Source: Rhodococcus ruber (GTDB lineage: Bacteria; Actinomycetota; Actinomycetes; Mycobacteriales; Mycobacteriaceae). Taken from it: 64,000 bases of DNA. The stretch lies in assembly GCF_027270735.1 (NCBI RefSeq), contig NZ_JAPWIJ010000006.1, forward strand, positions 372,001 through 436,000, in the 5' to 3' direction. The translations under genes and the position numbers were made by a program. Shown in pieces: positions 21,757 to 59,881 of this stretch. Positions within the stretch are counted from its first letter, which is position 1; the number at the start of each line of letters is the position of its first letter. Under the pieces are notes generated by a model, which saw only the letters and a list, made by a program, of their open reading frames with translations, made no database searches and was not told the DNA's origin.

Positions 21757-22740
21757 GTGACGGACACCGGCATCACTCCCGAATCCGACCTGCGGACCGG
21801 CCACGCCACCCAGGCCGCCCGGCTGTACTACTTCCAGGACATGACGATGGCGGCGATCGGCCGTGAGCTGGGAGTCTCTCGTTCGACCGTCTCACGACTG
21901 ATCACCTTCGCGCGGGCGTCGGGACTGGTGGAAATCAAGATCTCCACACCGCTCGGGCAGGCACCACGAATCGAGCGGGCCTTCGCCGATCTGTACGACA
22001 TCCGTGCACACGTCGTCCCGGTCTCGGAGACGGTGGACGAATTGCAGCGCCTCGATCGTGTCGCCACGTTCGCCGGTCGATTGCTGACATCGTTCTTCGA
22101 GTCCGACATGGTGATGGGCGTGGCCTGGGGAACCACCGTCAGTGCCGTCAGCCGCAAGGTGGCACCCAAGAGAACCCACAACTCGACCGTCGTGCAGCTC
22201 AACGGGGCAGCCAACACCCGCACCACCGGAGTCTCCTACGCCACCGACATCATCAGAACCTTTGCCGACGCCTACGGCGCTGTAGCACAGGGCTTTCCGG
22301 TTCCCGCATTCTTCGACTACCCCGAGACCCGCCGACACCTGTGGCGTGAACGCAGCATCAGGCGAGTACTCGAGCTGCAGGATCGGATGAACCTGGCCGT
22401 GTTCAGCATCGGCGTCATGAGCGGAGCCGTACCGAGCCACGTCTACAGCGCCGGCTACCTCGAACCCGAGGACGGTGCCGAGCTCCGACGTGACGGCGTC
22501 GTCGGAGACATCGCCACCGTGTTTCTCCGGTCCGACGGTAGTTACGACCGAATTGCGTTGAACGACAGGTCGAGTGGACCGAGTCTCGATCGCATCAAAA
22601 AGGTCGAGCGACGACTGTGCATCGTCGCCGGGGCCTCCAAGCTCGACGCACTCACCGCGGCGCTGCGAGGCGGACTGATCACCGACCTCGTCATCGACGA
22701 CATCAGCGCTGCCCAACTGATCCTGCGATCACGCACCTGA
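21757..22740 (+). CDS. SorC/DeoR-family sugar-responsive regulator of glycerol genes
   Basis: 327 residues from GTG at 21757. The N-terminal helix-turn-helix is YYFQDMTMAAIGRELGVSRSTVSRL. A large SorC-type phosphosugar-binding domain follows (VMGVAWGTTVSAVSR, then a C-terminal AGASKLDALTAALRGGLITDLV typical of the family). No Shine-Dalgarno sequence is seen and a -10-like TACACT ends 7 bp upstream, so a leaderless transcript is likely. It is divergent from glpFKD and probably controls it in response to glycerol-3-phosphate or a related metabolite. Confidence 0.88.
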   Translation: MTDTGITPESDLRTGHATQAARLYYFQDMTMAAIGRELGVSRSTVSRLITFARASGLVEIKISTPLGQAPRIERAFADLYDIRAHVVPVSETVDELQRLDRVATFAGRLLTSFFESDMVMGVAWGTTVSAVSRKVAPKRTHNSTVVQLNGAANTRTTGVSYATDIIRTFADAYGAVAQGFPVPAFFDYPETRRHLWRERSIRRVLELQDRMNLAVFSIGVMSGAVPSHVYSAGYLEPEDGAELRRDGVVGDIATVFLRSDGSYDRIALNDRSSGPSLDRIKKVERRLCIVAGASKLDALTAALRGGLITDLVIDDISAAQLILRSRT

Positions 22741-22785
22741 CGGTTGCTCTTGCGCTCACGCACTCGAGGTGTCACTCTTGAAACC

Positions 22786-22824
22786 ATGACAACCGGAAAG
22801 GCGGACACCGCCTCCCTCACGTGA
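22786..22824 (+). CDS. Possible 12-residue leader peptide
   Basis: ATG at 22786 opens MTTGKADTASLT, whose TGA overlaps the GTG at 22821 used as start of the next gene (GTGA). Short upstream ORFs that couple translation are common in actinobacteria. There is no conservation evidence here and chance is possible. Confidence 0.25.
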   Translation: MTTGKADTASLT

Positions 22825-24086
22825 GCGCCGTGCCGATGCCGTCGACATTCCCCCGTCGCGGCACATTCAGTGACGATCCCGATACATATTCCGAGAGCAT
22901 TCGTGCGGTCTGCGCGGTTCGCGACAGCTGGCTCGACCTCGGCCTGAGAGTCGGTCCGTCGGACAGATCGACCGCGGAATCTGCAGTGGCACAACTGTAT
23001 CGCCGAGTGGAGTACGAGGAGCCCGAGTTCGTGTGGGTGACCTCACCCGCTGCCGCAACGACATTCGTCAACGCCGAGGGACTGGCGACGGAGACGCCCG
23101 TACCCGGTGCGACGATCGACCACGCACCGGCACGTATCGCCTCGCTGCTGGCCGATTCGCGCCGGCGGATGGATCAGCGAATCGACGGTCGAAGAATCGA
23201 ATGGCCGCGACAACGATTCCGTCCCGACGGGAACTTCGACCGCGACCTCCCAGCGCGGATCACAGCCGCGAACAGTCCACCGGAAGACGCTGCCCGCGCG
23301 GGCATCAGCCCCGACCCCATCGTTCGCAGGACAGTCTGGAATTCGTTGCGCACCAGCCTGTTCGACGGGGTAGCCTCGGCGATCCGGCAGCTCGCCCCGC
23401 ACTCATTCGGCAGCATCACCTGGTACGGCCAACAGGAGGCGCATCGTGTCGCCTTCTACGACATCCATCGACGGTTCGGCTTGACCACCTTCTCGGCCGG
23501 CCACGTCGAACTACTCGAACTTCAGCGTGATCTCGTCGAGTCGACCGGATGGTGGTGGGCGTTCGAGAACGTCGCAGTGATGTGCGAGCGGCCCACCACC
23601 CTGCAGACCGAACCGATACCGGACTCCTTCCACGGCGAAGTGCGACTGCACAATTCGCGAGCACCCGCGCTCGAGTTCAGCGACGGACATGCCGTCAACG
23701 TGCTGCACGGCACCGTCGTTCCCGACTGGGTGATGCACGATCCGACCGTCGAACGCATCACCACCGAACGCAACGTCGAGGTTCGACGCTGCGCGATCGA
23801 ACGCATCGGCTGGGACACCTACCTCGACCAGGCCGGGCTCGCCCTACTCGACACCGCCGACGATCCAGGAAATCCGGGGTGCACTCTGCACCTGTTCGCC
23901 ACCCCTGCAGGATGGGGAGGAGACGGCCGAGTACTGCTGGCCGTCAACGGCTCCCGCGAAAGAGACGGTGACCGTCGACGCTACGGCCTGCGCATCCCCG
24001 GCGAGATTTCCTCGGCACTGGACGCCGCGGCGTGGACGTACGGCCTATCCGGAACAGACTATGTCCAACTGCTCCGCCGCACGTAG
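22821..24086 (+). CDS. Uncharacterised protein with DUF6745-like C-terminal region
   Basis: 421 residues from GTG at 22821 (GTG 22830 or ATG 22836 also possible). No catalytic motif is recognised. The middle part contains FGSITWYGQQEAHRVAFYD. It is followed by a stretch resembling DUF6745: WWWAFENVAVMCERPTTLQ, LHNSRAPALEFSDGHAV and LHGTVVPDWV. Such proteins in actinobacteria often lie next to a small partner, as here. No signal peptide or TM segment is visible, so it is cytosolic. Function is unknown. Confidence 0.7.
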   Translation: MSAVPMPSTFPRRGTFSDDPDTYSESIRAVCAVRDSWLDLGLRVGPSDRSTAESAVAQLYRRVEYEEPEFVWVTSPAAATTFVNAEGLATETPVPGATIDHAPARIASLLADSRRRMDQRIDGRRIEWPRQRFRPDGNFDRDLPARITAANSPPEDAARAGISPDPIVRRTVWNSLRTSLFDGVASAIRQLAPHSFGSITWYGQQEAHRVAFYDIHRRFGLTTFSAGHVELLELQRDLVESTGWWWAFENVAVMCERPTTLQTEPIPDSFHGEVRLHNSRAPALEFSDGHAVNVLHGTVVPDWVMHDPTVERITTERNVEVRRCAIERIGWDTYLDQAGLALLDTADDPGNPGCTLHLFATPAGWGGDGRVLLAVNGSRERDGDRRRYGLRIPGEISSALDAAAWTYGLSGTDYVQLLRRT

Positions 24087-24093
24087 CTTCCAC

Positions 24094-24127
24094 CCAACTC
24101 ACACGACTACCCAACTCACACGACTAC
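24094..24127 (+). repeat. Two tandem 17-bp repeats upstream of a small ORF
   Basis: The unit CCAACTCACACGACTAC occurs twice without interruption (24094-24110 and 24111-24127). It is followed by a degenerate third start (CCAAGGTGACTCACATG, from 24128) that contains the ribosome binding site and start codon of the gene at 24142. The array fills the whole 55-bp gap between the two genes. Confidence 0.85.
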
Positions 24128-24141
24128 CCAAGGTGACTCAC

Positions 24142-24597
24142 ATGATCTCCGACATGACACTGTCCACACTGACCACTCTCACCGGCCTCGACGTTTTCGA
24201 CTACCTCGACCGAGAAATTTCCGTACCCGTGATCGACGGCCTGCAGGCCCAGGGAGATCTCATCGTCGTTCCCTACTCGCTGCTGACCGAGAGCGTCGCC
24301 ACCACCGACCGTAGCCACACCGAGAACGTGCCACTCTCGGGAATCGAGTTGCTGCGCAGCGCAGTCGGCGGCAACCCGCACAGCCTCGTTGCCGACGGTG
24401 GGCCGTGCACGTGGTCCGCACCGGTGTTCGATGCCCGGGGCCTGGCCCTTGGCATTCTGGACACGTCGGTGACCGCGTATCTCATTCACCCGGAGCACGG
24501 TGCCACCGGAATTGCGCCCGGCCGATACGTCATCGGTCGTCAGCGCGAGGGCACCCGAAGCGGGTGGGGTCGATCGTCCCAGCTGGTCGCCGACTGA
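24142..24597 (+). CDS. Small uncharacterised protein paired with the DUF6745-like gene
   Basis: 151 residues; AAGGTG precedes the ATG. The sequence is mostly beta-prone (QGDLIVVPYSLLTES, LGILDTSVTAYLIHPEHG, GIAPGRYVIGRQREG), without TM segments or cysteine clusters. The final GRYVIGRQREG stretch resembles C-termini of small proteins that accompany DUF6745-type proteins in actinobacteria. No function can be assigned. Pairing and short spacing suggest it acts with the 22821-24086 product. Confidence 0.7.
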   Translation: MISDMTLSTLTTLTGLDVFDYLDREISVPVIDGLQAQGDLIVVPYSLLTESVATTDRSHTENVPLSGIELLRSAVGGNPHSLVADGGPCTWSAPVFDARGLALGILDTSVTAYLIHPEHGATGIAPGRYVIGRQREGTRSGWGRSSQLVAD

Positions 24598-24614
24598 CAT
24601 TCACCGGCCGACCG

Positions 24615-26156
24615 TCACCGGTGGTTGTCGCCTGAGCGGCGCGGCGTCGTCTCGTAGGACTCGAGGTCGAAGGTCCGCAGTAGCCTGCGGAACCTGAAAC
24701 TGAAATCGGGCCACAACGCGATGTTCCGACCTGTGCTGTCCAGGAACCAACTTCGACATCCACCGGTGACCCAGACGCTCTTGCTCATCTTTCGCTGGAG
24801 GTCGCTGTTGTAGCGTTCCTGCACCTCCGGACGCACCTCGACGCTGGCGATCTGCTGATCCTGTACCGCGGCTACTGCGTCGACTATGTAATTGATCTGC
24901 GATTCGATCATGAAGATCGCCGAGGAGTAGCCCAGCCCGGAGTTCGGTCCGAGGATGACGAACATGTTCGGGAACCCGGCCACCGCGGTGCCCTTGTAGG
25001 CGGAAACTCCCTGTTCGGCATATATCTCGGTCAACGTCTTACCTGCCCGGCCGCGAAAGAGTTCGAATGCCGGCGAGTCGGTGATGCGAAAGCCGGTGGC
25101 GACCACGATCGCATCGACCGGACGCACGGTGCCGTCGACCGTCACGATCGACTCCTTCTGCACGCCGGCGATCCCGGAGGTGACGACGTCGACGTTCTCG
25201 CGACCGAGCGCCGGATAATATTCGTTCGATGACAACATGCGCTGGCAGCCGACGCGATATTCGGGGGTGACCTGAGCGCGCAGGGCGCGGTCTCGTACCT
25301 CTAACCGCAGCTTGACCGCCGCGATCAGACCGAGGCCGACGGTCGCCGGGGGAAATTTGATGAGCACGATCGCGTAGATCTCTCGCAGCAGGTAGAGAAT
25401 CGACCGAAAGGCGCTGGTGAGCCCGGGAACTCGACGAAAGGCAAGCCTCTCGAGCTTGCTGTACTTTCGGAGCAGCCTCGGGAAGATCCACGGTGCCGTC
25501 CGCTGGAAGAGATCGAGATGGGCAACTGTGCTCGCGATTGCGGGCACGATCTGAATAGCCGACGCTCCGGTACCGATCACCGCCACCCGTTTGTGTGCGA
25601 GGTCGACGGTGTGGTCCCACTGCGCCGAGTGGAAGACCGGGCCGTCGAACCGGTCGAGCCCCTCGATGTCGGGCATGTTCGGCTCGCACAGTGCACCCAT
25701 GGCCGAGACCACTACCTTCGCACTGATCGGTCCGTGAGTTGTGGCCAGCCTCCACCGCGCCGTCGGCTCGTCCCAATCGGCTGCGATCAGTTCGTGATCG
25801 AACGAGAACTTCTCTCGAATGTCGTGCCGGTCGGCGACACCGAGAATGTAGTCCTGGATCTCCGGCTGCGTCGAGAACGATTGCGACCAGTTCGGATTGT
25901 GATCGAAGGAGAACGAATACAGGTGCGAGGGAACATCGCACGCCGCACCCGGATAGGTGTTGTCGCGCCAGGTTCCACCGAAGTCGTTGCCGCGTTCGAG
26001 AACCACGAAGTCCTCGATACCGCGTCTGCGTAGTGCCACTGCGAGCCCGATCCCGCCCACACCTCCGCCGATCACTGCGATCTCCACCTCGCGTACAGGA
26101 GTCGAAGCAGCATCGGACAGGTGCGGACGAGTTACTGCGGTGTCGTGGATGACCAT
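24615..26156 (-). CDS. Baeyer-Villiger-type flavin-containing monooxygenase
   Basis: 513 residues. VEIAVIGGGVGGIGLAVALR is the FAD Rossmann motif and VAVIGTGASAIQIVPAIAS the NADPH one. Between them FDGPVFHSAQWD is close to the Baeyer-Villiger fingerprint FxGxxxHxxxW. The family inserts oxygen next to a ketone or oxidises heteroatoms. It is the last gene of the isoprenoid-like operon and its start lies inside the end of the methyltransferase gene (25-bp overlap). It would probably oxidise the prenyl-derived intermediate. It is clearly paralogous to the protein encoded at 58346-59881. Confidence 0.88.
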   Translation of the reverse strand: MVIHDTAVTRPHLSDAASTPVREVEIAVIGGGVGGIGLAVALRRRGIEDFVVLERGNDFGGTWRDNTYPGAACDVPSHLYSFSFDHNPNWSQSFSTQPEIQDYILGVADRHDIREKFSFDHELIAADWDEPTARWRLATTHGPISAKVVVSAMGALCEPNMPDIEGLDRFDGPVFHSAQWDHTVDLAHKRVAVIGTGASAIQIVPAIASTVAHLDLFQRTAPWIFPRLLRKYSKLERLAFRRVPGLTSAFRSILYLLREIYAIVLIKFPPATVGLGLIAAVKLRLEVRDRALRAQVTPEYRVGCQRMLSSNEYYPALGRENVDVVTSGIAGVQKESIVTVDGTVRPVDAIVVATGFRITDSPAFELFRGRAGKTLTEIYAEQGVSAYKGTAVAGFPNMFVILGPNSGLGYSSAIFMIESQINYIVDAVAAVQDQQIASVEVRPEVQERYNSDLQRKMSKSVWVTGGCRSWFLDSTGRNIALWPDFSFRFRRLLRTFDLESYETTPRRSGDNHR

Positions 26157-27013
26157 GGTGTGGAGTCACTTTCGGTGTCGCGTCGGGTGTCGACGTCGGA
26201 CTGTTCCGACTCGACAGGTCGTGGCATTCTGCGCAGGGCCTGTCTCGGAGACGGGAAGAACGCCGGTACCCGAGCGGCGTAGGCGCGGTACGAACTGCCG
26301 AACCTCGCCAGCAGGTCCCGTTCCTCCAGCGCAGTCCCCAGCAGGATGTAGCCGGTGAGACCAGCGGCCCACAGCAGATGACCGGCCGTCATCTCGCTCG
26401 CGCCCCAGAAGGTCAGCAGCAGTCCGGTCATCAACGGGTGACGCACCAACCGATACGGCCCGTGGACCTGCAGTCGATCCGCGGTGGCGTCGGGAATCCG
26501 GATGACATACTCGCGGTAGGCCTGTCGCAGGCCCAGCAGGTGGAAGTGGTCGAGCAACAGTGTCGCTGCGTAGACCAGAAGCACGCCCACCCAGAATGCG
26601 GAGTCGAGAACACGGCCTGCAACACCGTCGATCGACCAGATCCGGTACGGAATGGGCTGCCAGGCCAGGACCAGAAACCAGACCACTGCGCTCACCATGA
26701 AGATGTACACGGTGCGCTCGAGCGCCTCGGGCACCCGCCGGGTGAGCCACGCCTTGAACGACGGTCTCGCCATACCCGAATGCTGTAGGCCGAACAGTCC
26801 GACGACCGCCAGGTCGATGGGGACTGCAACCCACGGCGACAGATGCGGTCCGTCGTCGACCGTCTTGGGCAACAGCCGGCCGCCGGAGAAGAGCAACAGC
26901 AACGGAACCGTGATGCCGGCGATCGCATAGCCGGTCAGGGCCGCGAGAAAGGGCAGCAGCCGAGCTCGATCGCGCAGCGTCTCGCGAACCTGCGGCCAGG
27001 GAATCAGATCCAC
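26132..27013 (-). CDS. Membrane methyltransferase, ICMT/NnrU/MddA-like
   Basis: 293 residues from GTG at 27013, overlapping the desaturase stop by 10 bp. About six hydrophobic segments. LFGLQHSGMARPSFKAWLTR matches the N-terminal motif of NnrU/MddA proteins (MddA is methanethiol S-methyltransferase). HGPYRLVRHPLMTGLLLTFW and the later EERDLLARFGSSYRAYAARV are the SAM-binding motifs of the isoprenylcysteine carboxyl methyltransferase superfamily. MddA-like activity is one option. In an operon with prenyl synthases, methylation of an isoprenoid acid or alcohol is equally plausible. The tail beyond the family core is hydrophilic. Confidence 0.75.
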   Translation of the reverse strand: MDLIPWPQVRETLRDRARLLPFLAALTGYAIAGITVPLLLLFSGGRLLPKTVDDGPHLSPWVAVPIDLAVVGLFGLQHSGMARPSFKAWLTRRVPEALERTVYIFMVSAVVWFLVLAWQPIPYRIWSIDGVAGRVLDSAFWVGVLLVYAATLLLDHFHLLGLRQAYREYVIRIPDATADRLQVHGPYRLVRHPLMTGLLLTFWGASEMTAGHLLWAAGLTGYILLGTALEERDLLARFGSSYRAYAARVPAFFPSPRQALRRMPRPVESEQSDVDTRRDTESDSTPWSSTTPQ

Positions 27014-28014
27014 GCGAACCAGCGCAGAACTCGCGGCCGGACGGTGCCTGCTTCGATCTTGCTCTCCAGCTTGGCCTTCCAACGCTCACCGTACGTCGCA
27101 TCGAGGAACGCGCCAGGGATCGCCAGTCGCCACGCGGACTGGATCGTCATCCAGTAGGGGACGATGACCTCCGGCTCCACGTCGCGCATGAACACGAGCT
27201 TGTCCGGAATGACACTCCAGTGCACACCGGGATAGCGATGGTGCACACTGTGATACCCCTGGTTGAAGATGAAGAAGTTGAGCCAGTTCCCGGCCGTGTT
27301 GAGCGACTTGCTCGGGTCGTCCTCGAAGCCTCGTGCCGGGGCATGGGTGAGCCATGCGAAGTACCCGGAATTGACCTGAGTGATCAGGAACGGGATCCAG
27401 TAGAACACCACGAACGGACCCGTCCCGGCGAAGTACCAGGCGACGACGATGAAGGTCAGGGCAACAGCACAATCGAACGAGAACTGTCGACGTCGTTTAC
27501 GTCTGGCGTCCGACACCCCGGTGGCGAACAACTCGCGAATCGTGTGCATCTTGACGATCGAGCCGTACCGAATCCAATATCCGACGGCACCCGAACCGTG
27601 CTCCCGGCCCTCGGTGGACGTCACGTCTCCTGGGCCGTCGTTGTATCGGTGATGGTTGAGCACATGCACCTCGCGCATCTCGGCCGCCGTCAAGGAGGCA
27701 GGGAGGGAACACAGGATGTCCACCACTCGATTGGCCCGGCGCGAGACGAACAGTGGTCGGTGAGTGTGCATGTGCAACACCCCGATGGTCAAGGAGAAGC
27801 TCAGCAGGGTCAGGACGAGCACGAGAGGCACCGCGGTGTACCAGCGCTGGGCGATCGGCGAGAACAGTCCGAAGCCAAGAAGTGCGAGCCACAGTGCGAC
27901 GTGGACGAGCGGACCCACGTTCGCCGGATTCTCCAGGCGGAAGATGCGCTTGCTGATCGGATCTTTCGGTTCGCCGGTCGTACCGGTCTCGTTCCGGGGT
28001 GTCACCGCAGTCAT
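27004..28014 (-). CDS. Membrane fatty-acid-desaturase-type di-iron enzyme
   Basis: 336 residues. The three histidine boxes of membrane desaturases/hydroxylases are present: HMHTHR, HVLNHHRY and HSVHHRYPGVHW. Four hydrophobic stretches flank them in the usual 2+2 arrangement. It resembles lipid desaturases and carotene ketolase/hydroxylase-like enzymes; the substrate cannot be read. ATG overlaps the stop of the squalene/phytoene-synthase-like gene by 4 bp and has AAAGG before it. In this operon it may desaturate or hydroxylate the condensed isoprenoid. Confidence 0.82.
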   Translation of the reverse strand: MTAVTPRNETGTTGEPKDPISKRIFRLENPANVGPLVHVALWLALLGFGLFSPIAQRWYTAVPLVLVLTLLSFSLTIGVLHMHTHRPLFVSRRANRVVDILCSLPASLTAAEMREVHVLNHHRYNDGPGDVTSTEGREHGSGAVGYWIRYGSIVKMHTIRELFATGVSDARRKRRRQFSFDCAVALTFIVVAWYFAGTGPFVVFYWIPFLITQVNSGYFAWLTHAPARGFEDDPSKSLNTAGNWLNFFIFNQGYHSVHHRYPGVHWSVIPDKLVFMRDVEPEVIVPYWMTIQSAWRLAIPGAFLDATYGERWKAKLESKIEAGTVRPRVLRWFAWI

Positions 28015-29303
28015 GATTGCCTTTCAGAATCGAGTGGGAGATGCGGTGCCGTTCGGGACATCGCAGCCGTCTGAAACCGAGTGCCGAGAAGGTGCATGGC
28101 GTTGCTGTCGCCGGGCTGCATACGCTCGAGCGATCCGAAAGCGAGGTGGTCGGCAATCATCATTCGGCGTACCTGGTCCTCGGGCAGCTCGCCGCGCAGC
28201 GCTCCGGCCGGCAGCCCGTCGACGAGCGCCATCACCGAGTCCACGACGATCGAGCCCATCGCGGTGTCCGCGGAGTGCGTATCGATGCGCGGAAACAAGC
28301 TGTCCGGCAACTGTTGTCCGCCCTCGGTCGACGAGTCGAGCAGGAACTCGACCGTTCTGTCCACCGACTCACGCAGGCGGTCGAGCATGGCCTCCCATCG
28401 GTCGGTACCGGTGGCCGCGACCACCGCACCGACCAGACGCAGCCTCCGGGAATACGGACTTCGCACTCCGACCGCGCCGCAGAAGAATGCGGTCGTGGTG
28501 ATCGACATGTAGGCGACGGCCGCCCTGGCACCCTTGCTCCGGGTTCGCCGTCCGAGATGCGACAACAGAGCGAATGTGCCGAGTGCCGGTGTCAGCAAAC
28601 GCAATACGATCTCATGCGTCAATTCGGCACTGGTACCCACCCGGTACAGCTCGAGTTCCTGATCGCGGAGATCGTTCGCCAGTTGCGCCGCGGCTCCCAC
28701 GCAGTGGGCCAGCTCGGTGACATCCTCATCGGTGGCGTCCGGGTCGTTGTCGCAGATCACCGTGCACGCATAGACCACGACACGCCCGAGGACTCTCTCG
28801 CCGTACGTGACCCGCGCCATCGGTGTGTCGAGATTGTCTGCCATTGCGGTGGCAACGTCGATCAGCAGCTCTCGCACGCGTGTGCGGCCGGCGACCGGCA
28901 GTCCTTCGACCAACACCCGCACGTCGTCGATCCGTTCGGCGAGAACCGAATCCACCGCATCACTCTCACGCAGAACTCGCGCACGCAACGGTGGCGGCGG
29001 GACCGGGTCGTCGCCCACGAGATACCGGGCCGCTCCGAGCACCGTCGTCGCAGCGCCCACGGAACCGGAGTACAGGTCCTCGTAGGCGTCGAGCACTCGA
29101 CAGGCCAGCACAGCCGCAATCGATTCGGTCCGTTGCACCTCCGGCAACAGGTCGATTGCCACGGCCAGGTTTCGGGCGGCGGGTATCAATGCCGATTCGG
29201 CGAGTTCATCCGGCGTACCTGCCCGCAGGAGCGCGGACGGATCGACCGCACGTCGGAGATCCCGTATGCCGCGGGCAAGTATCAGTAGGCGGGCGGGCCT
29301 CAC
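28011..29303 (-). CDS. Squalene/phytoene-synthase-like head-to-head prenyl transferase
   Basis: 430 residues from GTG at 29303, which overlaps the prenyl synthase stop (GTGA). The open frame runs further upstream, but that part lies antisense-free in another frame of the synthase gene and is not protein-like. Two Asp-rich motifs are placed as in squalene/phytoene synthases: CRVLDAYEDL (about residue 70) and GAAAQLANDLRDQELE (about residue 230). Both are divergent from the classical forms, and the protein is about 100 residues longer than a typical CrtB. Condensation of two prenyl diphosphates is the likely reaction, but a changed chemistry is possible. Confidence 0.7.
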   Translation of the reverse strand: MRPARLLILARGIRDLRRAVDPSALLRAGTPDELAESALIPAARNLAVAIDLLPEVQRTESIAAVLACRVLDAYEDLYSGSVGAATTVLGAARYLVGDDPVPPPPLRARVLRESDAVDSVLAERIDDVRVLVEGLPVAGRTRVRELLIDVATAMADNLDTPMARVTYGERVLGRVVVYACTVICDNDPDATDEDVTELAHCVGAAAQLANDLRDQELELYRVGTSAELTHEIVLRLLTPALGTFALLSHLGRRTRSKGARAAVAYMSITTTAFFCGAVGVRSPYSRRLRLVGAVVAATGTDRWEAMLDRLRESVDRTVEFLLDSSTEGGQQLPDSLFPRIDTHSADTAMGSIVVDSVMALVDGLPAGALRGELPEDQVRRMMIADHLAFGSLERMQPGDSNAMHLLGTRFQTAAMSRTAPHLPLDSERQS

Positions 29304-30316
29304 CGGAGCACGACCCGTCGGGCCAGTGTGCGCAGGTGCTCTCGCGCAGGCGAATCGACGAAACACTCGGTTGCGATGCATGCCTGCCGCCTCGCGGATT
29401 CGGCGAACTCGCGAGCGCTGCCGAGTGCTCCGCTGTGTGTCAATGCGGCCTGCAGGTCGCGGCCGGACACCGACTCGTCGAGCCACATCTTCCGCGCCTC
29501 GGCATCGGTACACAGCCAGTCGATCACCGGCCAGGTAGGCACTCTGCGTTCGAGATCTCCGCAGGCATCCTTGCCCAGGTTCGGCCCGCCCTCGATATCG
29601 CGGACGTCGTCCATGATCTGGAATGCCAGCGCCAGATGATCTGCGTAGTTCATCAGACTGCGCAGTCCATCGTCGTCCACTCCGCCTGCTGTACCGCCGT
29701 AGGCGCAGGCGAGCCTGAACAGTGTCCCGGTCTTGGCTCCGGCAACCGCGCGGTAGTGCCTCCTGAGCGCACCGTCCTCGAGATCCGGCGGCAAGGTTTC
29801 GATCAACTGACCGTACGAGAGTTCCGACAGTCGATCGAGATACGTCACTCCGGCAGCGCGACCGATTCGGGCGAACACAGAAGGATTGGCGTCGAGCACT
29901 CTCGCGACTTCCCGCAGTGCGGTACCCGCCAGGTGGAAGCCGGCACACGCTGCCACTCGAACACCGAATGCTGCTGCAACAGAATTATTGTCGCGACGAA
30001 GTAACGACCCGTCACAGATGTCGTCGTGTATCAGAGAGGATTCGTGCAACATCTCGATCGCAGCCGCGATGTCGACGGCGTCGCGCAACGGTACCGCATC
30101 AGCGCCGGGCGCGAGCTGCGCACACGCAAGTACCATGCCGGCGCGCACACGCTTTCCCGGTATCGAGAGAACATGATCATAGATCGAACGAAAGGTACTG
30201 TGCGGCTCGAGAATACGGTTCATTGCCGCCTGGACGGCGCCTAGTTGCGCCGATACCACGATGGCATCCGGCTTTGCCGGAGACGCCCATTCCAGACCCA
30301 TGGCATCAGCAACCAT
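29300..30316 (-). CDS. Trans-isoprenyl (polyprenyl) diphosphate synthase
   Basis: 338 residues from ATG 30316 (TTG 30328 and ATG 30301 are alternatives). All elements of an active chain-elongating synthase are present: GKRVRAGM (pyrophosphate-binding), LIHDDICDGSLLRR (first Asp-rich motif) and FQIMDDVRDIEG (second Asp-rich motif). It condenses IPP with allylic diphosphates to give a C15-C20 or longer product. Bulky or small residues before the first motif would set chain length, but I cannot predict it reliably. It is the first gene of a five-gene operon whose joints all overlap. Confidence 0.9.
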   Translation of the reverse strand: MVADAMGLEWASPAKPDAIVVSAQLGAVQAAMNRILEPHSTFRSIYDHVLSIPGKRVRAGMVLACAQLAPGADAVPLRDAVDIAAAIEMLHESSLIHDDICDGSLLRRDNNSVAAAFGVRVAACAGFHLAGTALREVARVLDANPSVFARIGRAAGVTYLDRLSELSYGQLIETLPPDLEDGALRRHYRAVAGAKTGTLFRLACAYGGTAGGVDDDGLRSLMNYADHLALAFQIMDDVRDIEGGPNLGKDACGDLERRVPTWPVIDWLCTDAEARKMWLDESVSGRDLQAALTHSGALGSAREFAESARRQACIATECFVDSPAREHLRTLARRVVLR

Positions 30317-30542
30317 CGACAACACCAATCGAACGTAGAGCGCTGTCAGGCAACACTTTCGATAGAGATTTCAGATGCGCGTGCGCGTCGAGACACACCC
30401 GTCTCCGCAATTTTCCGTCCATGAATACTCCCCCGCCGATCGCCCCCTGATCCTGCTGCGCGCCACATTAAGTGACACAGGGCACCGACAGCCAGCCGAG
30501 GCAACCGAATGACGCAAAGTCATAGCCAAAACGCACAAACGG
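30317..30542. promoter_or_regulatory. Promoter region of the isoprenoid operon
   Basis: This 226-bp stretch lies between the LysR stop and the prenyl synthase start. It is AT-richer than its surroundings and has no ORF with coding character. It must hold the operon promoter, but I could not find a convincing -35/-10 pair or a palindrome. Confidence 0.4.
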
Positions 30543-31484
30543 TCACGAATGGTTCGTTTTTGTACCTAGCGACCGGCCACGATCAAGTTGATCGATTGAC
30601 GAATTAATAAGCGGTGCTATCCAATTGGGAGAATAGACGAGCATCGTGCGCTCCGCGGGCGGCACCGGCCAGGGGACGACCGCACCGCCCGTGGCAGTCA
30701 CCGAACGCGCCATCGACTCGGCCATGACCGCCGCGCCGATTCCATGGGCGACGAGTCCCGGCAGTGCCTGCTGCGGCACCCCGCTCAACACCACTGCCGC
30801 CACGATCCCGAACCCCGCCAGAGCGTCGACGACACCGACGCCCATACGATGCGTCGGTGCCAGCACGGCCAACGGAACCGCCACGTCGAGTCGATCCAGG
30901 GTGCCGACATCTCCTGATCCGGGCGGAAGTGCAAGCACGAGAACCTCATCGGGCAAGTATTCGTGGACGAGGTCGGCCGGCGCGTCGGAACCGGGAACCA
31001 CCGCGCAGTCGATCTGCCCCATCCGAACCTGCGCCAGCGCTTCCGTGGGATCGGAGATCGTCACGACGTCGATCCGCGAGCCCGGTCGCGCAGCGACGAA
31101 TGCCGCCATCAATTCCGGCGTTGCCGAACGGTCCGACAGCGCGATGCGTACGGTCGGTGCCGCACCGCCGGAATGCGTCGTCCGCAGTTCGTCGACCACT
31201 CGCTCGACAGCTCGATGGTCGAGTACAGTTCGACGCGCAAGCGGTAGTAAGGCAGCACCTTCGGGGCTCAGAACCAGCATATTGGCGTCACGACGAAACA
31301 ACTCGACACCCAGTTCGGTCTCGAGACTTCGCACGATGCCGGACACCGTCGGTTGGCTTACCCCGAGTGCACGAGCCGCGTTACCGAGTCCATGCTCGTC
31401 GACGATGGCCACGAAGCACTCGAGCATCGAAGTGGTGACGTTCACGGCATCAGTGTGAACACTTCGGTGGGGCTGCAGCATCAT
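30543..31484 (-). CDS. LysR-family transcriptional regulator
   Basis: 313 residues from ATG 31484. GTG 31445, which gives the usual LysR N-terminus beginning a few residues before MLECFVAIVDEHG, is an alternative. Winged helix-turn-helix GNAARALGVSQPTVSGIVRSLE. The LysR substrate domain (about 95-300) contains IDCAVVPGSDAP and a GIGAAVMAESMA stretch. It is divergent from a second LysR gene with under 90 bp between them. It points toward the isoprenoid operon on the same strand, 227 bp away, but is not clearly its regulator. Confidence 0.87.
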   Translation of the reverse strand: MMLQPHRSVHTDAVNVTTSMLECFVAIVDEHGLGNAARALGVSQPTVSGIVRSLETELGVELFRRDANMLVLSPEGAALLPLARRTVLDHRAVERVVDELRTTHSGGAAPTVRIALSDRSATPELMAAFVAARPGSRIDVVTISDPTEALAQVRMGQIDCAVVPGSDAPADLVHEYLPDEVLVLALPPGSGDVGTLDRLDVAVPLAVLAPTHRMGVGVVDALAGFGIVAAVVLSGVPQQALPGLVAHGIGAAVMAESMARSVTATGGAVVPWPVPPAERTMLVYSPNWIAPLINSSIDQLDRGRSLGTKTNHS

Positions 31485-31531
31485 CGGGGGTACGTCGGGT
31501 TCCTTCCGGTGTCATCGATCGACGGGACGTG

Positions 31532-32422
31532 ATGGAACTTTCTTCACGACAACTGCGGCAGTGCGTTGCGGTCGCCGACGCAGGTTCGATGAGCGGTGCG
31601 GCAATCGAACTCGGACTGAGCCCGTCCACAGTCTCGCGCGCTGTCGCACGATTCGAGGAGCAGACCCACGTGACCGTTTTCGAGCGGCGCGGTATGCGAC
31701 TCGTGCCGACCGATGCGGGACGGGAAATCGTGCGCGCTGCCCGGCGCGTCGTCGATGATCTGAACCTGTTCTCCGCCCTTGCCGTCGACGCCGCCCTCGG
31801 CCGAGTGGGGGCAGTAGTGGTGGCGGCTCCAGCTGACGACACCGGGCCCGTTCTGCCGACCATGATCGCGTCTGTGACACGAGGGCGACCGCGCCTGAAT
31901 GTGCACATCGCACGCGTCGAGACCGCCACGGCAGCAATGGAATCTCTGCGATCCGGTGCTGCCGAGCTGGCGTTGATTCCGCGTCTTCCCACTCCGCCCG
32001 ATCTGCTCGGCATCCACGTCGGACGCCAGGAGTTGACGCTGATCGTCCCTGCGGCGTGGACGCAGTCGAATGCCCGGATCAGCGATCGGCACGGACTCGA
32101 CTGGCTGGGCGAGTTCCCCTTCATCGCCGGTGCCGTCGAGACCACCGGTGCACATGCGCTGGAACGACTTCGACGTTCGGGTGCCCGCCCACACACGGTG
32201 CTGACCGGCACGCCGGTTCTGACGATACCGAGCCTGGTGGATGCCGGTGTCGGTGCTGCACTCGTACCGAGTTCGATGCCACTCGACACGTTTGCCCATC
32301 TCCGGTCGATCGATCTGACGCCGCCGCTGACGTACTCCATCACCTTGATGCACAGGACCGGCGAGCAATCCCCCGCAACCCGCCAGTTCATCGATTGGGC
32401 TCGGTCCGCCACCGGTGAGTGA
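31532..32422 (+). CDS. LysR-family transcriptional regulator
   Basis: 296 residues from ATG 31532 (GTG 31529 overlaps it). Helix-turn-helix GAAIELGLSPSTVSRAVARFEEQ, then a LysR-type effector domain with AAELALIPRLPTPPDL and PSLVDAGVGAALVPSS. It is divergent from another LysR gene and upstream of a solitary MCE gene. No metabolic gene is closely attached, so its target is open. Confidence 0.87.
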   Translation: MELSSRQLRQCVAVADAGSMSGAAIELGLSPSTVSRAVARFEEQTHVTVFERRGMRLVPTDAGREIVRAARRVVDDLNLFSALAVDAALGRVGAVVVAAPADDTGPVLPTMIASVTRGRPRLNVHIARVETATAAMESLRSGAAELALIPRLPTPPDLLGIHVGRQELTLIVPAAWTQSNARISDRHGLDWLGEFPFIAGAVETTGAHALERLRRSGARPHTVLTGTPVLTIPSLVDAGVGAALVPSSMPLDTFAHLRSIDLTPPLTYSITLMHRTGEQSPATRQFIDWARSATGE

Positions 32423-32534
32423 GCTGCATCTCATATTTCTGGCGTTGATACATGCATCTCACAAGCCGTCGCGAAGTAGTAAGTGTGACGTCATGTACCA
32501 CTAATGTTCGCGACATGGTTGACGCTCTCGATCC

Positions 32535-33875
32535 GTGCTTCCCGTGACCGGCACCCCCTCGCCGCTGCAGAACCGGCTTCTCGGAATTGCCCTCGTGGTA
32601 CTCATCGTCGTGTTCGTCGGGTGGAGCGTCACCTCGTACAACAAGACGTTCCAGGACGTCGTGACCGTCTCCCTGCAGACCGACAGCGTCGGCAACGCGC
32701 TCCCCCGCAATGCCGATGTCAAGGTGCGGGGCATGATCGTGGGCGAAGTCCGATCGGCGACGACGACCGATGGCGTCGTGACGTCCGAGTTGGCGATCCA
32801 GCCGGACATGGCCGAGATGATTCCGTCGAACGCCACCGCTCGGCTTCTCCCGAAGACACTGTTCGGCGAGCGGTATGTGTCGCTGATACTCCCGGACGGC
32901 GCACCGGCCTCGCCGATCGGTGAGGGCACCGTCCTGAAGCAGGATCGCAGCGGCAATGCCATCGAGGTGGGCCAGCTGCTCGACGGCCTCTTGCCGCTGC
33001 TCCAAGCCGTCCCTCCGCAGGACCTGTCCAACACCCTCGGCGCTCTGGCGCAGGGTCTGAGCGGTCGCGGCGAGGAACTCGGCCTCACCATCGACCGCCT
33101 GGAGGACATCTTCGCCGGGCTCAACACCGAACTTCCCGCAATCCAGCAGGATCTGCGTGGTCTCGCAGACTTCTCGCAGACCTACTCCGATGCGGCCCCC
33201 GAGTTGATCAATGCGCTGGACAATCTGCGGACCACCGGCAACACCGTCGTCGAGAAGCGCCCGGCCCTCGAGACGCTCTACGCTTCGCTCACATCGGCCT
33301 CGAACACGACGGCCGGCTTTCTGGAGGCGAACTCTGCACAGCTGATCGGCTTGGCCGCGAACTCACGTGAGGCACTCGAGGTGTTCGCCGAGTTCTCGCC
33401 TGCTCTGGGCTGCACCGTCTCACAGTTCGCCGAGGGTGCCAGGCGCGGCAAGATCCTGCTCGGCGACGGTGACGAGTATCCCGGCATCAACGTTTCGATG
33501 CCGTTGGTCAATCCGAAGGGGCGTTACCTACCCAATCAGGACGAACCGAGATTGTTCGAGCAGAACCGAGGCCCGAGTTGCTACACGTCCCTCGATCGTT
33601 ATGCCGGCGAGTACTTCCCCCAGTATCCGGGCGGTTCACCCAACGACGGCTCGTACCAGGTGCCGACGAGGAACCCTGGCGAGCAGAACATTCCCGTCCT
33701 CCCGGCACCTCAGCTCTCCCCCGTGCCCGCCTCTTACGCAGGCTCGGTCACCGAGCAGCAGACCTTGGCGGTCATCTACGGCGGGGCCACCGGAATCGAG
33801 CCCGATGCAGTGCCGTCCTGGACGACGACGGTCGGAGCTCCCGCCCTCAGAGGAACGCAGGTCACCTTCCAGTAG
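32535..33875 (+). CDS. MCE-family lipid-transport protein (solitary)
   Basis: 446 residues from GTG 32535 (GTG 32544 is an alternative). One N-terminal membrane anchor (LLGIALVVLIVVFVGWSV), then the MCE domain with the family hallmark LPRNADVKVRGMIVGEV. A long helical region and a Pro-rich C-terminus follow, as in MceA-type proteins. MCE proteins form periplasmic lipid conduits with YrbE permeases and usually lie in yrbEAB-mceABCDEF operons. No other mce or yrbE gene is present here. A 28-bp-spaced direct repeat TGCATCTCA (32425 and 32453) is in the upstream gap. Confidence 0.88.
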   Translation: MLPVTGTPSPLQNRLLGIALVVLIVVFVGWSVTSYNKTFQDVVTVSLQTDSVGNALPRNADVKVRGMIVGEVRSATTTDGVVTSELAIQPDMAEMIPSNATARLLPKTLFGERYVSLILPDGAPASPIGEGTVLKQDRSGNAIEVGQLLDGLLPLLQAVPPQDLSNTLGALAQGLSGRGEELGLTIDRLEDIFAGLNTELPAIQQDLRGLADFSQTYSDAAPELINALDNLRTTGNTVVEKRPALETLYASLTSASNTTAGFLEANSAQLIGLAANSREALEVFAEFSPALGCTVSQFAEGARRGKILLGDGDEYPGINVSMPLVNPKGRYLPNQDEPRLFEQNRGPSCYTSLDRYAGEYFPQYPGGSPNDGSYQVPTRNPGEQNIPVLPAPQLSPVPASYAGSVTEQQTLAVIYGGATGIEPDAVPSWTTTVGAPALRGTQVTFQ

Positions 33876-58345: not shown

Positions 58346-59881
58346 ATGGCTGCATCACATTCGACTGCCGACACTGCACTGCCGCACATCGACGTCGCCA
58401 TCATCGGCGCGGGCTTCGGAGGTCTCGGGGCCGCGATCAGGCTCGAGCAGGAAGGCCGCGGCGACTTCTTGATCTTCGAGCGCGATACGGCTGTCGGAGG
58501 AACCTGGCATGTCAACACCTATCCCGGTGCCCAGTGCGATATTCCATCGGCACTGTATTCGTTCTCGTTCGCGCCCAATCCGAACTGGACGCGCCTGTAT
58601 CCGCTACAGCCGGAGATCGAGCAGTACCTCGACGACTGCACCGATCGGTTCGGTATCCGCGATCGAATCCGCTTCGGACACGAGGTGCTCGATGCGACAT
58701 GGGACGACGAGCGCGTGCAGTGGGTGGTACGCACGAGCGGTGGTACTTGGACTTCTCGGATTCTGATCGGAGCCCTCGGCCCGTTCAGTGAACCGGCGAC
58801 TCCCTTTATCGCAGGACTGGATTCGTTCTCGGGCTCGGTGTTCCACTCCGCGCACTGGGACCATGGCTACGACGTGAAGGGGCGACGCCTCGCCGTCATC
58901 GGCACCGGTGCATCGGCGGTGCAGTTCGTCCCGCGCCTGGCCCCCGAGGCCGGGCATCTCACGCTGTTCCAGCGGACACCGACGTGGATTCTTCCGCACC
59001 CCGACCGGCCCATCTCCGACTCCGGCAGATCCCTGTTCGAGAAGTTCCCACCGGCTCAGCGCGCCATGCGTCGCATGTTCGATCTGTTCCAGGAAGCGTT
59101 GGTGCCGGGATTGATTCGGCACCGTTCCCTGTTGGCCCCACTGACCGCCCTCGGGCGCGCGCACCTACGCCGTCAGGTGAAGGATCCGATTCTTCGCGAG
59201 AAGCTCACGCCCTCCTACGCATTCGGTTGCAAACGGCCGACCTTTTCCAACAAGTTCTACCCCGCTCTGTGCCGAGAGAACGTCACTGTCGAGACCACCG
59301 GCATCGACGCGATCGTGCCCGAGGGAATCGTCACGACCGACGGCACGGTCCACGAGGTGGATGCGATCGTTCTCGGAACCGGATTCACCGTCGCCGGCCA
59401 CTCGGGCTTCCGACGCATCGTCGGGCGAGGCGGAACATCACTGGCGGACACGTGGCCGGGTGGTGAAATGTCGTCGTATCGAGGGACCACGGTGCACGGT
59501 TTTCCGAACTTCTTCATGCTGCTCGGCCCCAATTCGGTGGTGTACACCTCGCAGGTCGTCACCATCGAAGCGCAGGTGAACTACATCCTGGCGGCCCTGC
59601 GCGCCATGGATTCTCACGCGATTTCCGTGCTCGAAGTGAGCAAGCGCGCGCAGACCGAGTTCGCCGATCACACCGACGCACAACTGGCAGGGTCGGTGTG
59701 GAACTCGGGCGGATGCAGCAGCTACTACCTGAGCCCCTCGGGCCGAAACGTCACGTACTGGCCGGGTTCGGTCCGCAACTTCACTCGACGCATGTCCACC
59801 ATCGAGCTCGACCACTATCACTGTCGGAGCGTGACGACCGGTGTGGATCCGACGCTCGTGACGACGAAGGACCTCGTATGA
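58346..59881 (+). CDS. Baeyer-Villiger-type flavin-containing monooxygenase
   Basis: 511 residues. VAIIGAGFGGLGAAIRLEQ binds FAD and LAVIGTGASAVQFVPRLAP binds NADPH. The fingerprint reads FSGSVFHSAHWD. GAGG-type ribosome binding site AGAAGGAGA lies before ATG 58346. It is similar along its length to the protein encoded at 24615-26156, so the two are paralogues in different pathways. Here it follows an oxygenase-reductase pair and precedes an SDR. An order of hydroxylation, oxidation to ketone and oxygen insertion is plausible. Confidence 0.9.
   Translation: MAASHSTADTALPHIDVAIIGAGFGGLGAAIRLEQEGRGDFLIFERDTAVGGTWHVNTYPGAQCDIPSALYSFSFAPNPNWTRLYPLQPEIEQYLDDCTDRFGIRDRIRFGHEVLDATWDDERVQWVVRTSGGTWTSRILIGALGPFSEPATPFIAGLDSFSGSVFHSAHWDHGYDVKGRRLAVIGTGASAVQFVPRLAPEAGHLTLFQRTPTWILPHPDRPISDSGRSLFEKFPPAQRAMRRMFDLFQEALVPGLIRHRSLLAPLTALGRAHLRRQVKDPILREKLTPSYAFGCKRPTFSNKFYPALCRENVTVETTGIDAIVPEGIVTTDGTVHEVDAIVLGTGFTVAGHSGFRRIVGRGGTSLADTWPGGEMSSYRGTTVHGFPNFFMLLGPNSVVYTSQVVTIEAQVNYILAALRAMDSHAISVLEVSKRAQTEFADHTDAQLAGSVWNSGGCSSYYLSPSGRNVTYWPGSVRNFTRRMSTIELDHYHCRSVTTGVDPTLVTTKDLV

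What the first reader, a model, noticed from the sequence alone, without database searches (positions are those of the whole stretch)
24615..30316. Five-gene overlapping operon resembling an undescribed isoprenoid pathway
Prenyl diphosphate synthase, a squalene/phytoene-synthase-like protein with altered Asp motifs, a three-His-box desaturase, an ICMT/NnrU/MddA-like membrane methyltransferase and a Baeyer-Villiger-type monooxygenase are joined by overlaps of 4, 4, 10 and 25 bp. No carotenoid desaturase (CrtI), lycopene cyclase or terpene cyclase of known type is present. The combination suggests a head-to-head condensed isoprenoid that is desaturated or hydroxylated, methylated and oxygenated. 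I do not know a described pathway with this gene set. Gene overlap is seen directly; the product is inferred.
Basis: partly seen in the sequence, partly recalled or inferred. Interest (0 to 1): 0.78.

Follow-up and report, generated by a model that had tools for sequence, protein, structure and literature searches.

The report
Insertable five-enzyme operon for unknown terpenoid
A patchily distributed seven-gene module in Rhodococcus, with relatives in Nocardia and Mycobacterium, looks like a dedicated pathway to an unidentified modified terpene, built around a squalene-synthase-like enzyme family that present name-giving models do not recognise.

The parts
29300..30316 (-). A: trans (E-type) prenyl diphosphate synthase, 338 aa; DDICD and DDVRD motifs, small residues (S or A at -5, S at -4) before the first motif
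   Evidence: ORF; PF00348 E 1.5e-44; motif region read in 37 of 38 locus matches, in L020 the pattern caught another stretch; best PDB relatives include GGPP, octaprenyl, decaprenyl and farnesyl diphosphate synthases
28011..29303 (-). B: SQS/PSY-fold synthase, 430 aa; D72xxED76 intact, Y167, N210-D211-L-R213-D214-x-E216, position 218 variable; C-terminal RRMMxADH segment
27004..28014 (-). C: membrane di-iron type desaturase/hydroxylase with three His boxes, 336 aa
   Evidence: PF00487 E 7.9e-35; His boxes; at E<=1e-40 only the own genome matched of 396 drawn across the phylum
26132..27013 (-). D: integral-membrane methyltransferase, MddA/NnrU/ICMT-like, 293 aa
   Evidence: PF07298 E 1.5e-6; NCBIfam MddA E 3.4e-65, 219.7 bits vs cut-off 270; matches of 86% identity or more only in the 4 carriers of B among 37 genomes (23 of the own genus), 6 others only weakly
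24615..26156 (-). E: Baeyer-Villiger-type flavin monooxygenase, 513 aa
   Evidence: PDB relatives steroid, cyclohexanone and phenylacetone monooxygenases; fingerprint FDGPVFHSAQWD; groups with the Nocardia cluster BVMOs, support 96/94
30543..31484 (-). LysR1, probable cluster-specific regulator
   Evidence: PF00126 and PF03466; orthologue of 83% or more only in the 4 carriers among 37 congeners, one other match at 50%
31529..32422 (+). LysR2, divergent from LysR1 (44 bp between them), inside the inserted segment
   Evidence: ORF; PF00126 and PF03466; lies within the segment absent from non-carriers
24603..32430 (.). Whole inserted module (A-E plus both LysR genes), about 7.8 kb, absent at the same site in non-carriers
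   Evidence: in L090 the alignment jumps from window 24602 to 32476 with 57 bp between; in L092 from 24597 to 32431 with 15 bp between; in L091 from 22740 to 32446 with 136 bp between
24616..24623 (.). 8-bp palindromic word CACCGGTG near the left border
   Evidence: may be chance
32410..32417 (.). same 8-bp word near the right border
   Evidence: may be chance

Best explanation
The locus is a self-contained, insertable specialised-metabolite module making an unidentified modified isoprenoid. Shown: anatomy, predicted fold of B, recurrence, insertion site, linkage in relatives to precursor-supply and transporter genes. Inferred: the chemistry. A elongates IPP/DMAPP to an all-trans prenyl diphosphate, probably C20 or longer (no aromatic gate at -4/-5; recalled rule). 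B, an SQS-fold enzyme with one complete and one degenerate metal motif, ionises it to give the hydrocarbon skeleton; I favour a single-diphosphate class I-type reaction (terpene-synthase-like, about 45%) over true head-to-head coupling (about 35%), with phosphatase or other prenyl transfer taking the rest. C introduces a double bond, hydroxyl or epoxide, D methylates in the membrane, and E inserts oxygen (ester or lactone from a ketone). The divergent LysR pair probably controls it. Relatives boost precursor supply by clustering the mevalonate pathway (Nocardia) or DXS (one mycobacterium), and four mycobacteria carry an MMPL transporter next to D, suggesting export of a lipophilic product there.
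Against: No product, transcript or enzyme assay. C, D, E are dispensable in the family: 6 of 34 loci show only A-B. The BVMO of L007 falls outside the E group, though on a long branch; E was not seen after HMGS in L012, L013, L014 within the 1.3 kb visible. LysR1/LysR2 gave no tblastn hit of 70 bits in the Nocardia and Mycobacterium loci. No mevalonate, DXS, MMPL or CCO relative of the query genes in this window. B's sequence link to SQS/PSY is weak: 28.9 bits; one of four Rhodococcus orthologues is under the Pfam cut-off; profile comparison with CrtB not significant; no PDB sequence relative. 4 of 30 Nocardia B matches are flagged with one in-frame TGA, not examined; 4 of 31 tblastn matches of D run over a stop, positions not examined. 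6 of 18 cluster BVMOs lack the strict BVMO pattern. No sigma-70-like promoter in a simple scan.
Confidence: 0.78

Rival explanations
1. B is a true head-to-head synthase (squalene- or phytoene-like), with E216/D211 standing in for the lost Asp, and the product is a C30-C50 linear isoprenoid tailored by C, D and E.
For: Best fold matches are squalene synthases, clearly above CrtM and HpnC; DxxED, N210, R213, D214 and Y167 conserved; one relative cluster (L009) carries a carotenoid-cleavage-type oxygenase after C; MMPL transporters move lipophilic cargo (recalled).
Against: Position 218, matched by spacing to the last Asp of the SQS/CrtB motif, is Ala 43, Glu 10, Thr 9, Asp 2 of 68, while the ED is invariant in the four CrtB-type sequences aligned. 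No CrtI- or HpnE-type partner among the five.
Confidence: 0.35
2. B is a prenyl diphosphate phosphatase or a prenyltransferase to another acceptor, like YisP or CqsB4; C, D and E then act on a prenyl alcohol or prenylated acceptor.
For: YisP, described as a farnesyl diphosphate phosphatase (PMC10148934, passages), and CqsB4/LvqB4, titled carbazole prenyl transferases, are in this fold family. ICMT and AfsA genes stand next to A-B in 5 mycobacterial loci (Pfam in L027; the others by tblastn).
Confidence: 0.18
3. The genes are a loose neighbourhood or a degraded carotenoid/hopanoid locus rather than a pathway.
For: Accessory genes vary between genera; a few flagged in-frame stops in relatives; the 8-bp border word is too short to prove a transfer event.
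Against: Overlapping open genes, co-conservation over three genera, exact co-occurrence with a linked mevalonate pathway in Nocardia, separate crt-type locus in the same genome; no stop inside the A, B, C or E tblastn matches of the fetched loci.
Confidence: 0.04

Closest known systems
Squalene/phytoene synthases (PF00494; human SQS 3WEH, CrtM 2ZCO)
   Different: Last Asp of the second motif absent in most; some 80 further C-terminal residues with invariant R379, D385, H386; no NCBIfam equivalog reached (HpnD 13.5 bits vs 278.6).
Non-canonical terpene synthases found beside prenyl diphosphate synthases in Mycobacterium, Nocardia and Streptomyces (classes ID, IE, IF; PMC11234867)
   Same: Same genomic logic: hypothetical helical protein beside an E-type prenyl diphosphate synthase in Mycobacterium/Nocardia; class I-like fold; an ND pair is present.
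   Different: Class ID motif RXXKD absent from the window's B (no KD in its sequence); the paper's class ID has relatives outside actinomycetes, whereas B was met only in the own genome of 394 class-wide genomes. Whether B belongs to the paper's types 2-6 could not be checked (supplement not readable here).
Mevalonate-bearing terpenoid clusters of Streptomyces, and the M. marinum MEV operon (PMC13001223, PMC12632256)
   Same: MVA genes clustered with a prenyl diphosphate synthase in actinobacteria; both papers describe dual MEP/MEV organisms.
   Different: In Nocardia they are linked to an SQS-fold synthase, desaturase, methyltransferase and BVMO; the M. marinum operon is idi-erg12-mvd-pmvk-hmgR-pksG-idsB2 (passages). 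The word Nocardia is absent from the main text of both.
crt-type locus of the same genome
   Same: Prenyl diphosphate synthase plus SQS_PSY-family gene.
   Different: Separate contig, with a CrtI-family gene over its cut-off, a CrtB-type gene (PF00494 216.9 bits, below the NCBIfam equivalog cut-offs) and a GFPPS-like gene (424.7 vs 600) (L069).
PtlE-type BVMO and MddA methanethiol S-methyltransferase
   Same: E and D score to these models.
   Different: Far below (E, 187.2 vs 1100) or below (D, 219.7 vs 270) the curated cut-offs, so substrates cannot be transferred.

Membership tests
Squalene/phytoene synthase family (PF00494) | Pfam gathering score | tested here: met
   28.9 vs 26 bits; in the whole-genome search one of four Rhodococcus orthologues scores 20.8, under the cut-off
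Squalene/phytoene synthase family (PF00494) | All-helical SQS fold | tested here: met
Squalene/phytoene synthase family (PF00494) | First Asp-rich motif (DxxxD/DxxED) | tested here: met
   D72 67/68, E75 68/68, D76 68/68
Functional head-to-head synthase | Second Asp-rich motif DxxxD | tested here: not met
   D214 68/68 but position 218 is A43, E10, T9, D2; the equivalence rests on spacing and the QLANDLRD/QLTNFIRD correspondence, itself a weak hhalign match
Functional head-to-head synthase | Squalene, dehydrosqualene or phytoene formed in vitro | not testable with these tools
   needs an assay
Carotenoid cluster | CrtI-type desaturase in the operon | tested here: not met
   E is the only FAD protein and scores 16.8 vs 238.1 to the crtI family; a crtI-family gene lies at another locus
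Hopanoid cluster | HpnC/HpnD/HpnE equivalogs | tested here: not met
   HpnD 13.5 vs 278.6 bits for B; HpnE 17.4 vs 283.05 for E
Class ID non-canonical terpene synthase (PMC11234867) | D(N/D), ND and RXXKD motifs | tested here: not met
   ND present (N210 D211) but no KD dipeptide in the window's B (sequence)
Class IE, class IF or types 2-4 of PMC11234867 | Sequence similarity to the listed proteins | not testable with these tools
   accessions are in supplements that could not be read; main text parts 1-2 of 3 read, passages
Methanethiol S-methyltransferase MddA (NF045656) | Curated score 270 bits | tested here: not met
   219.7 bits, full length of the model
Type I Baeyer-Villiger monooxygenase | FxGxxxHxxxW(P/D) fingerprint between two Rossmann motifs (recalled pattern) | tested here: met
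   GGGVGG 30, FDGPVFHSAQWD 170, GTGASA 195 in the window's E; strict pattern in 13 of 23 E-like sequences, 12 of the 18 that stand in such clusters
Membrane desaturase/hydroxylase superfamily (PF00487) | Three His boxes | tested here: met
Mevalonate-linked terpenoid cluster | MVA genes adjacent | tested here: not met
   no tblastn hit of the six MVA proteins in the window or in L005, L006; met in Nocardia

The most novel reading that the evidence does not exclude
B defines a new class of terpene synthase: the squalene-synthase fold turned into a single-diphosphate synthase, with the second Asp motif reduced to NDLRDxE and an added invariant C-terminal RRMMxADH module supplying the missing active-site residues. 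With C, D and E it makes a methylated, oxygenated terpenoid (lactone or ester) lipid, exported by MMPL proteins in some mycobacteria, and it is the end use of a whole clustered mevalonate pathway in Nocardia.
Probability: 0.35. Interest if true: 0.78.

Novelty: new variant of a known kind. Interest (0 to 1): 0.6.

Why it matters
It offers a testable end use for the clustered mevalonate pathway of about a fifth of the Nocardia genomes sampled (29 of 148), a core synthase family at the edge of present annotation models, and a conserved candidate lipid pathway, in some species with an adjacent MMPL transporter, shared by Rhodococcus, Nocardia and several mycobacteria. The clean presence/absence site in Rhodococcus allows closely related strains with and without the module to be compared.

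Tried and rejected
Carotenoid and hopanoid readings rejected: no CrtI/HpnCDE equivalog among the five, separate crt-type locus. Menaquinone modification: considered only from the families found, not searched for separately. Plasmid origin: B and C had no tblastn match in the 72,556 plasmid records. C elsewhere in the phylum: only the own genome of 396 at E<=1e-40; B elsewhere in the class: only the own genome of 394; both are sparse draws that missed known Nocardia carriers. PDB sequence relatives of B: one designed bundle at E 0.26. Profile comparison of B with four CrtB-type sequences: not significant, so residue equivalence rests on Pfam, fold and spacing. C and D: no PDB sequence relative at E<=1. 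Promoter/terminator scan: no promoter-like site, one weak terminator-like site. Mobility genes at the borders: none seen among the ORFs, but no dedicated search was made; the 8-bp border word may be chance. Literature: all 10 accepted searches; no listing pointed to a paper describing this gene set, but only open-access text was searched and most hits were seen as listings. Papers: PMC11234867 main text parts 1-2 of 3 and passages; PMC13001223 one section and passages; PMC12632256 abstract, outline and passages; PMC7839719, PMC10148934 and PMC10301674 passages only; all others listing only. My own gene calls in scripts mixed real and spurious ORFs; presence/absence counts use tblastn. Of the 120 listed B homologues (167 scored) I aligned 20 (A1) and 68 (A2). 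In the BVMO tree only hits of 370 or more aligned residues were kept (23 rows); in the B tree L001-L004 were dropped (35 rows); in both, any stop or gap sign in a tblastn match was written as X or removed. L009 and L019 come from the same metagenome-assembled genome.
Full report
WHAT IS THERE. Five minus-strand genes from 30316 to 24615 overlap by 4, 4, 10 and 25 bp. A is a trans-prenyl diphosphate synthase (PF00348, 152.5 bits); B matches SQS_PSY just over the Pfam cut-off (28.9 vs 26); C is a membrane FA_desaturase-type protein (121.3 bits); D is NnrU-like and scores 219.7 bits over the full length of NCBIfam's MddA model (cut-off 270); E is a flavin monooxygenase nearest to a BVMO model and to solved steroid, cyclohexanone and phenylacetone monooxygenases. 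C keeps its three His boxes in 114 or 115 of 115 aligned sequences, and the window's E has the BVMO fingerprint.

THE UNIT IS LARGER THAN GIVEN. In two non-carrier congeners the flanks are collinear with the window and meet: window 24602 is followed by 32476 with 57 bp between (L090), and 24597 by 32431 with 15 bp between (L092); in a third (L091) the jump is from 22740 to 32446. The segment of about 24603-32430 holds A-E plus two divergent LysR genes. LysR1 has an orthologue of 83% or more only in the four genomes that carry B, of 37 congeners, and one 50% relative elsewhere, while the flanking SorC-type regulator is found in 28 of 37. An 8-bp palindrome lies near each border, possibly by chance. 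GC content does not stand out. I do not know whether the segment was gained by carriers or lost by the others.

DISTRIBUTION. B is in 4 of 37 congeners, 13 of 401 genomes drawn from the family, 29 of 148 of the genus of G264 and 14 of 297 of the genus of G377 (one of these matches, in G1375, covers only the second half, and G1267 has three matches, two of them partial). In a class-wide draw of 394 only the own genome had it. A protein search scored 167 homologues; among the 120 listed, the named ones come from Rhodococcus/Rhodococcoides, Nocardia, Mycobacterium, Mycobacteroides or an unnamed Mycobacteriaceae MAG.

SYNTENY. The genome-contig scan returned 34 loci. By tblastn: A next to B in 34 of 34; C in 28; D in 27. 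Rhodococcus (L005, L006): A-B-C-D-E. Nocardia (20 loci): 19 have mevalonate genes after D (17 show all six in the order MVK-MDD-PMK-IDI2-HMGR-HMGS; L010 and L038 are cut by a contig end), 14 then have E; L023, a second copy in N. salmonicida, is A-B only. M. gastri, M. angelicum, M. simulans, M. szulgai: an MMPL transporter follows D. L007: A-B-C-D-BVMO-DXS. L009: A-B-C then a carotenoid-cleavage-type oxygenase; L019: A-B-C-D. Five mycobacterial loci (L017, L026, L027, L029, L036): A-B only, with ICMT and AfsA genes on the opposite strand upstream. Representatives of these neighbours were identified by Pfam and NCBIfam, the rest by tblastn. A tree of B groups the Rhodococcus (100/100), MMPL-type (100/98), AfsA-type (100/100) and Nocardia (90/91) rows; L009 and L019 are unresolved. 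A tree of the BVMOs groups Rhodococcus E with the Nocardia E proteins (96/94), next to a paralogue of the same genome; the L007 enzyme lies outside, on a long branch, so a BVMO was probably recruited more than once.

LINK TO MEVALONATE. In 148 Nocardia genomes HMGS was found in 50 at E<=1e-60. The 29 genomes with HMGS of 81% or more are exactly the 29 with B; the other 21 have only HMGS of 70% or less and no B. In 27 of 29 both genes lie on one contig, 8.4-8.9 kb apart; in two they are on different contigs. The genomes are related and the genes linked, so this shows a stable cluster, not 29 independent events. Four of the 30 B matches are flagged with one in-frame TGA, which I did not examine. 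PMC13001223 (one section and passages) does not contain the word Nocardia, and PMC12632256 (passages) says that the role of the prenyl synthase of the M. marinum MEV operon downstream is not known. The window itself has no relative of the mevalonate, DXS, MMPL or CCO queries.

CHEMISTRY (inferred). A has small residues before its first Asp motif, which by recalled rules argues for C20 or longer. The pathway reading is strong; the reaction of B is open between a single-diphosphate reaction (45%), head-to-head coupling (35%) and phosphatase or other transfer (the rest). Order and substrates of C, D and E are not known.

KNOWN OR NOT. The genome has a separate crt-type locus. The closest published precedent is the structure-based search for terpene synthases beside prenyl diphosphate synthases in Mycobacterium, Nocardia and Streptomyces (PMC11234867, main text parts 1-2 of 3): its class ID motif RXXKD is absent from B, but B could be one of its other types, and I could not read the supplement. 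Ten full-text searches of open-access papers listed none that describes this gene set.

VERDICT. Observation confirmed and enlarged; interpretation partly supported. A recurring, to my knowledge uncharacterised terpenoid pathway with an unusual core enzyme: a new variant of a known kind, interest 0.6.

Noticed in passing
L008 13080-16139; L015, L016, L018: MMPL-family transporter directly after the methyltransferase in four mycobacterial loci; suggests the product is exported there.
   Followed up: partly
L017, L026, L027, L029, L036, about 7.0-8.7 kb: ICMT-type methyltransferase and AfsA hotdog gene, divergent from an A-B-only version of the cluster in five mycobacterial loci; perhaps a second, differently tailored pathway on the same core.
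   Followed up: partly
L009 12306-13814: Carotenoid-cleavage-type oxygenase overlapping the end of C in place of D.
   Followed up: partly
L023 9060-11242 and 16467-18952: Second, A-B-only copy in Nocardia salmonicida, 5-8 kb from an Amino_oxidase-family gene (crtI-like by eye) and a CrtB-type gene (52% to the CrtB-type gene of G000).
   Followed up: partly
window 22821-24597: The DUF6745 gene and the following ORF are missing in carrier L006 and non-carrier L091, a second presence/absence segment beside the module.
   Followed up: no
B residues 379-389 (window about 28137-28169, minus strand): Invariant RRMMxADHLAF-type segment outside the SQS fold match; unknown role.
   Followed up: partly
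Nocardia genomes: 21 of 148 genomes carry only a more distant HMG-CoA synthase (70% or less) without B, and some have two or three copies: other mevalonate-linked clusters.
   Followed up: no
window 32535-33875: Mce-family gene (Mce4_CUP1 plus MlaD domains) follows the module's right border.
   Followed up: no
window 58442-59821: A second BVMO-type gene in the window, 43% identical to E.
   Followed up: no
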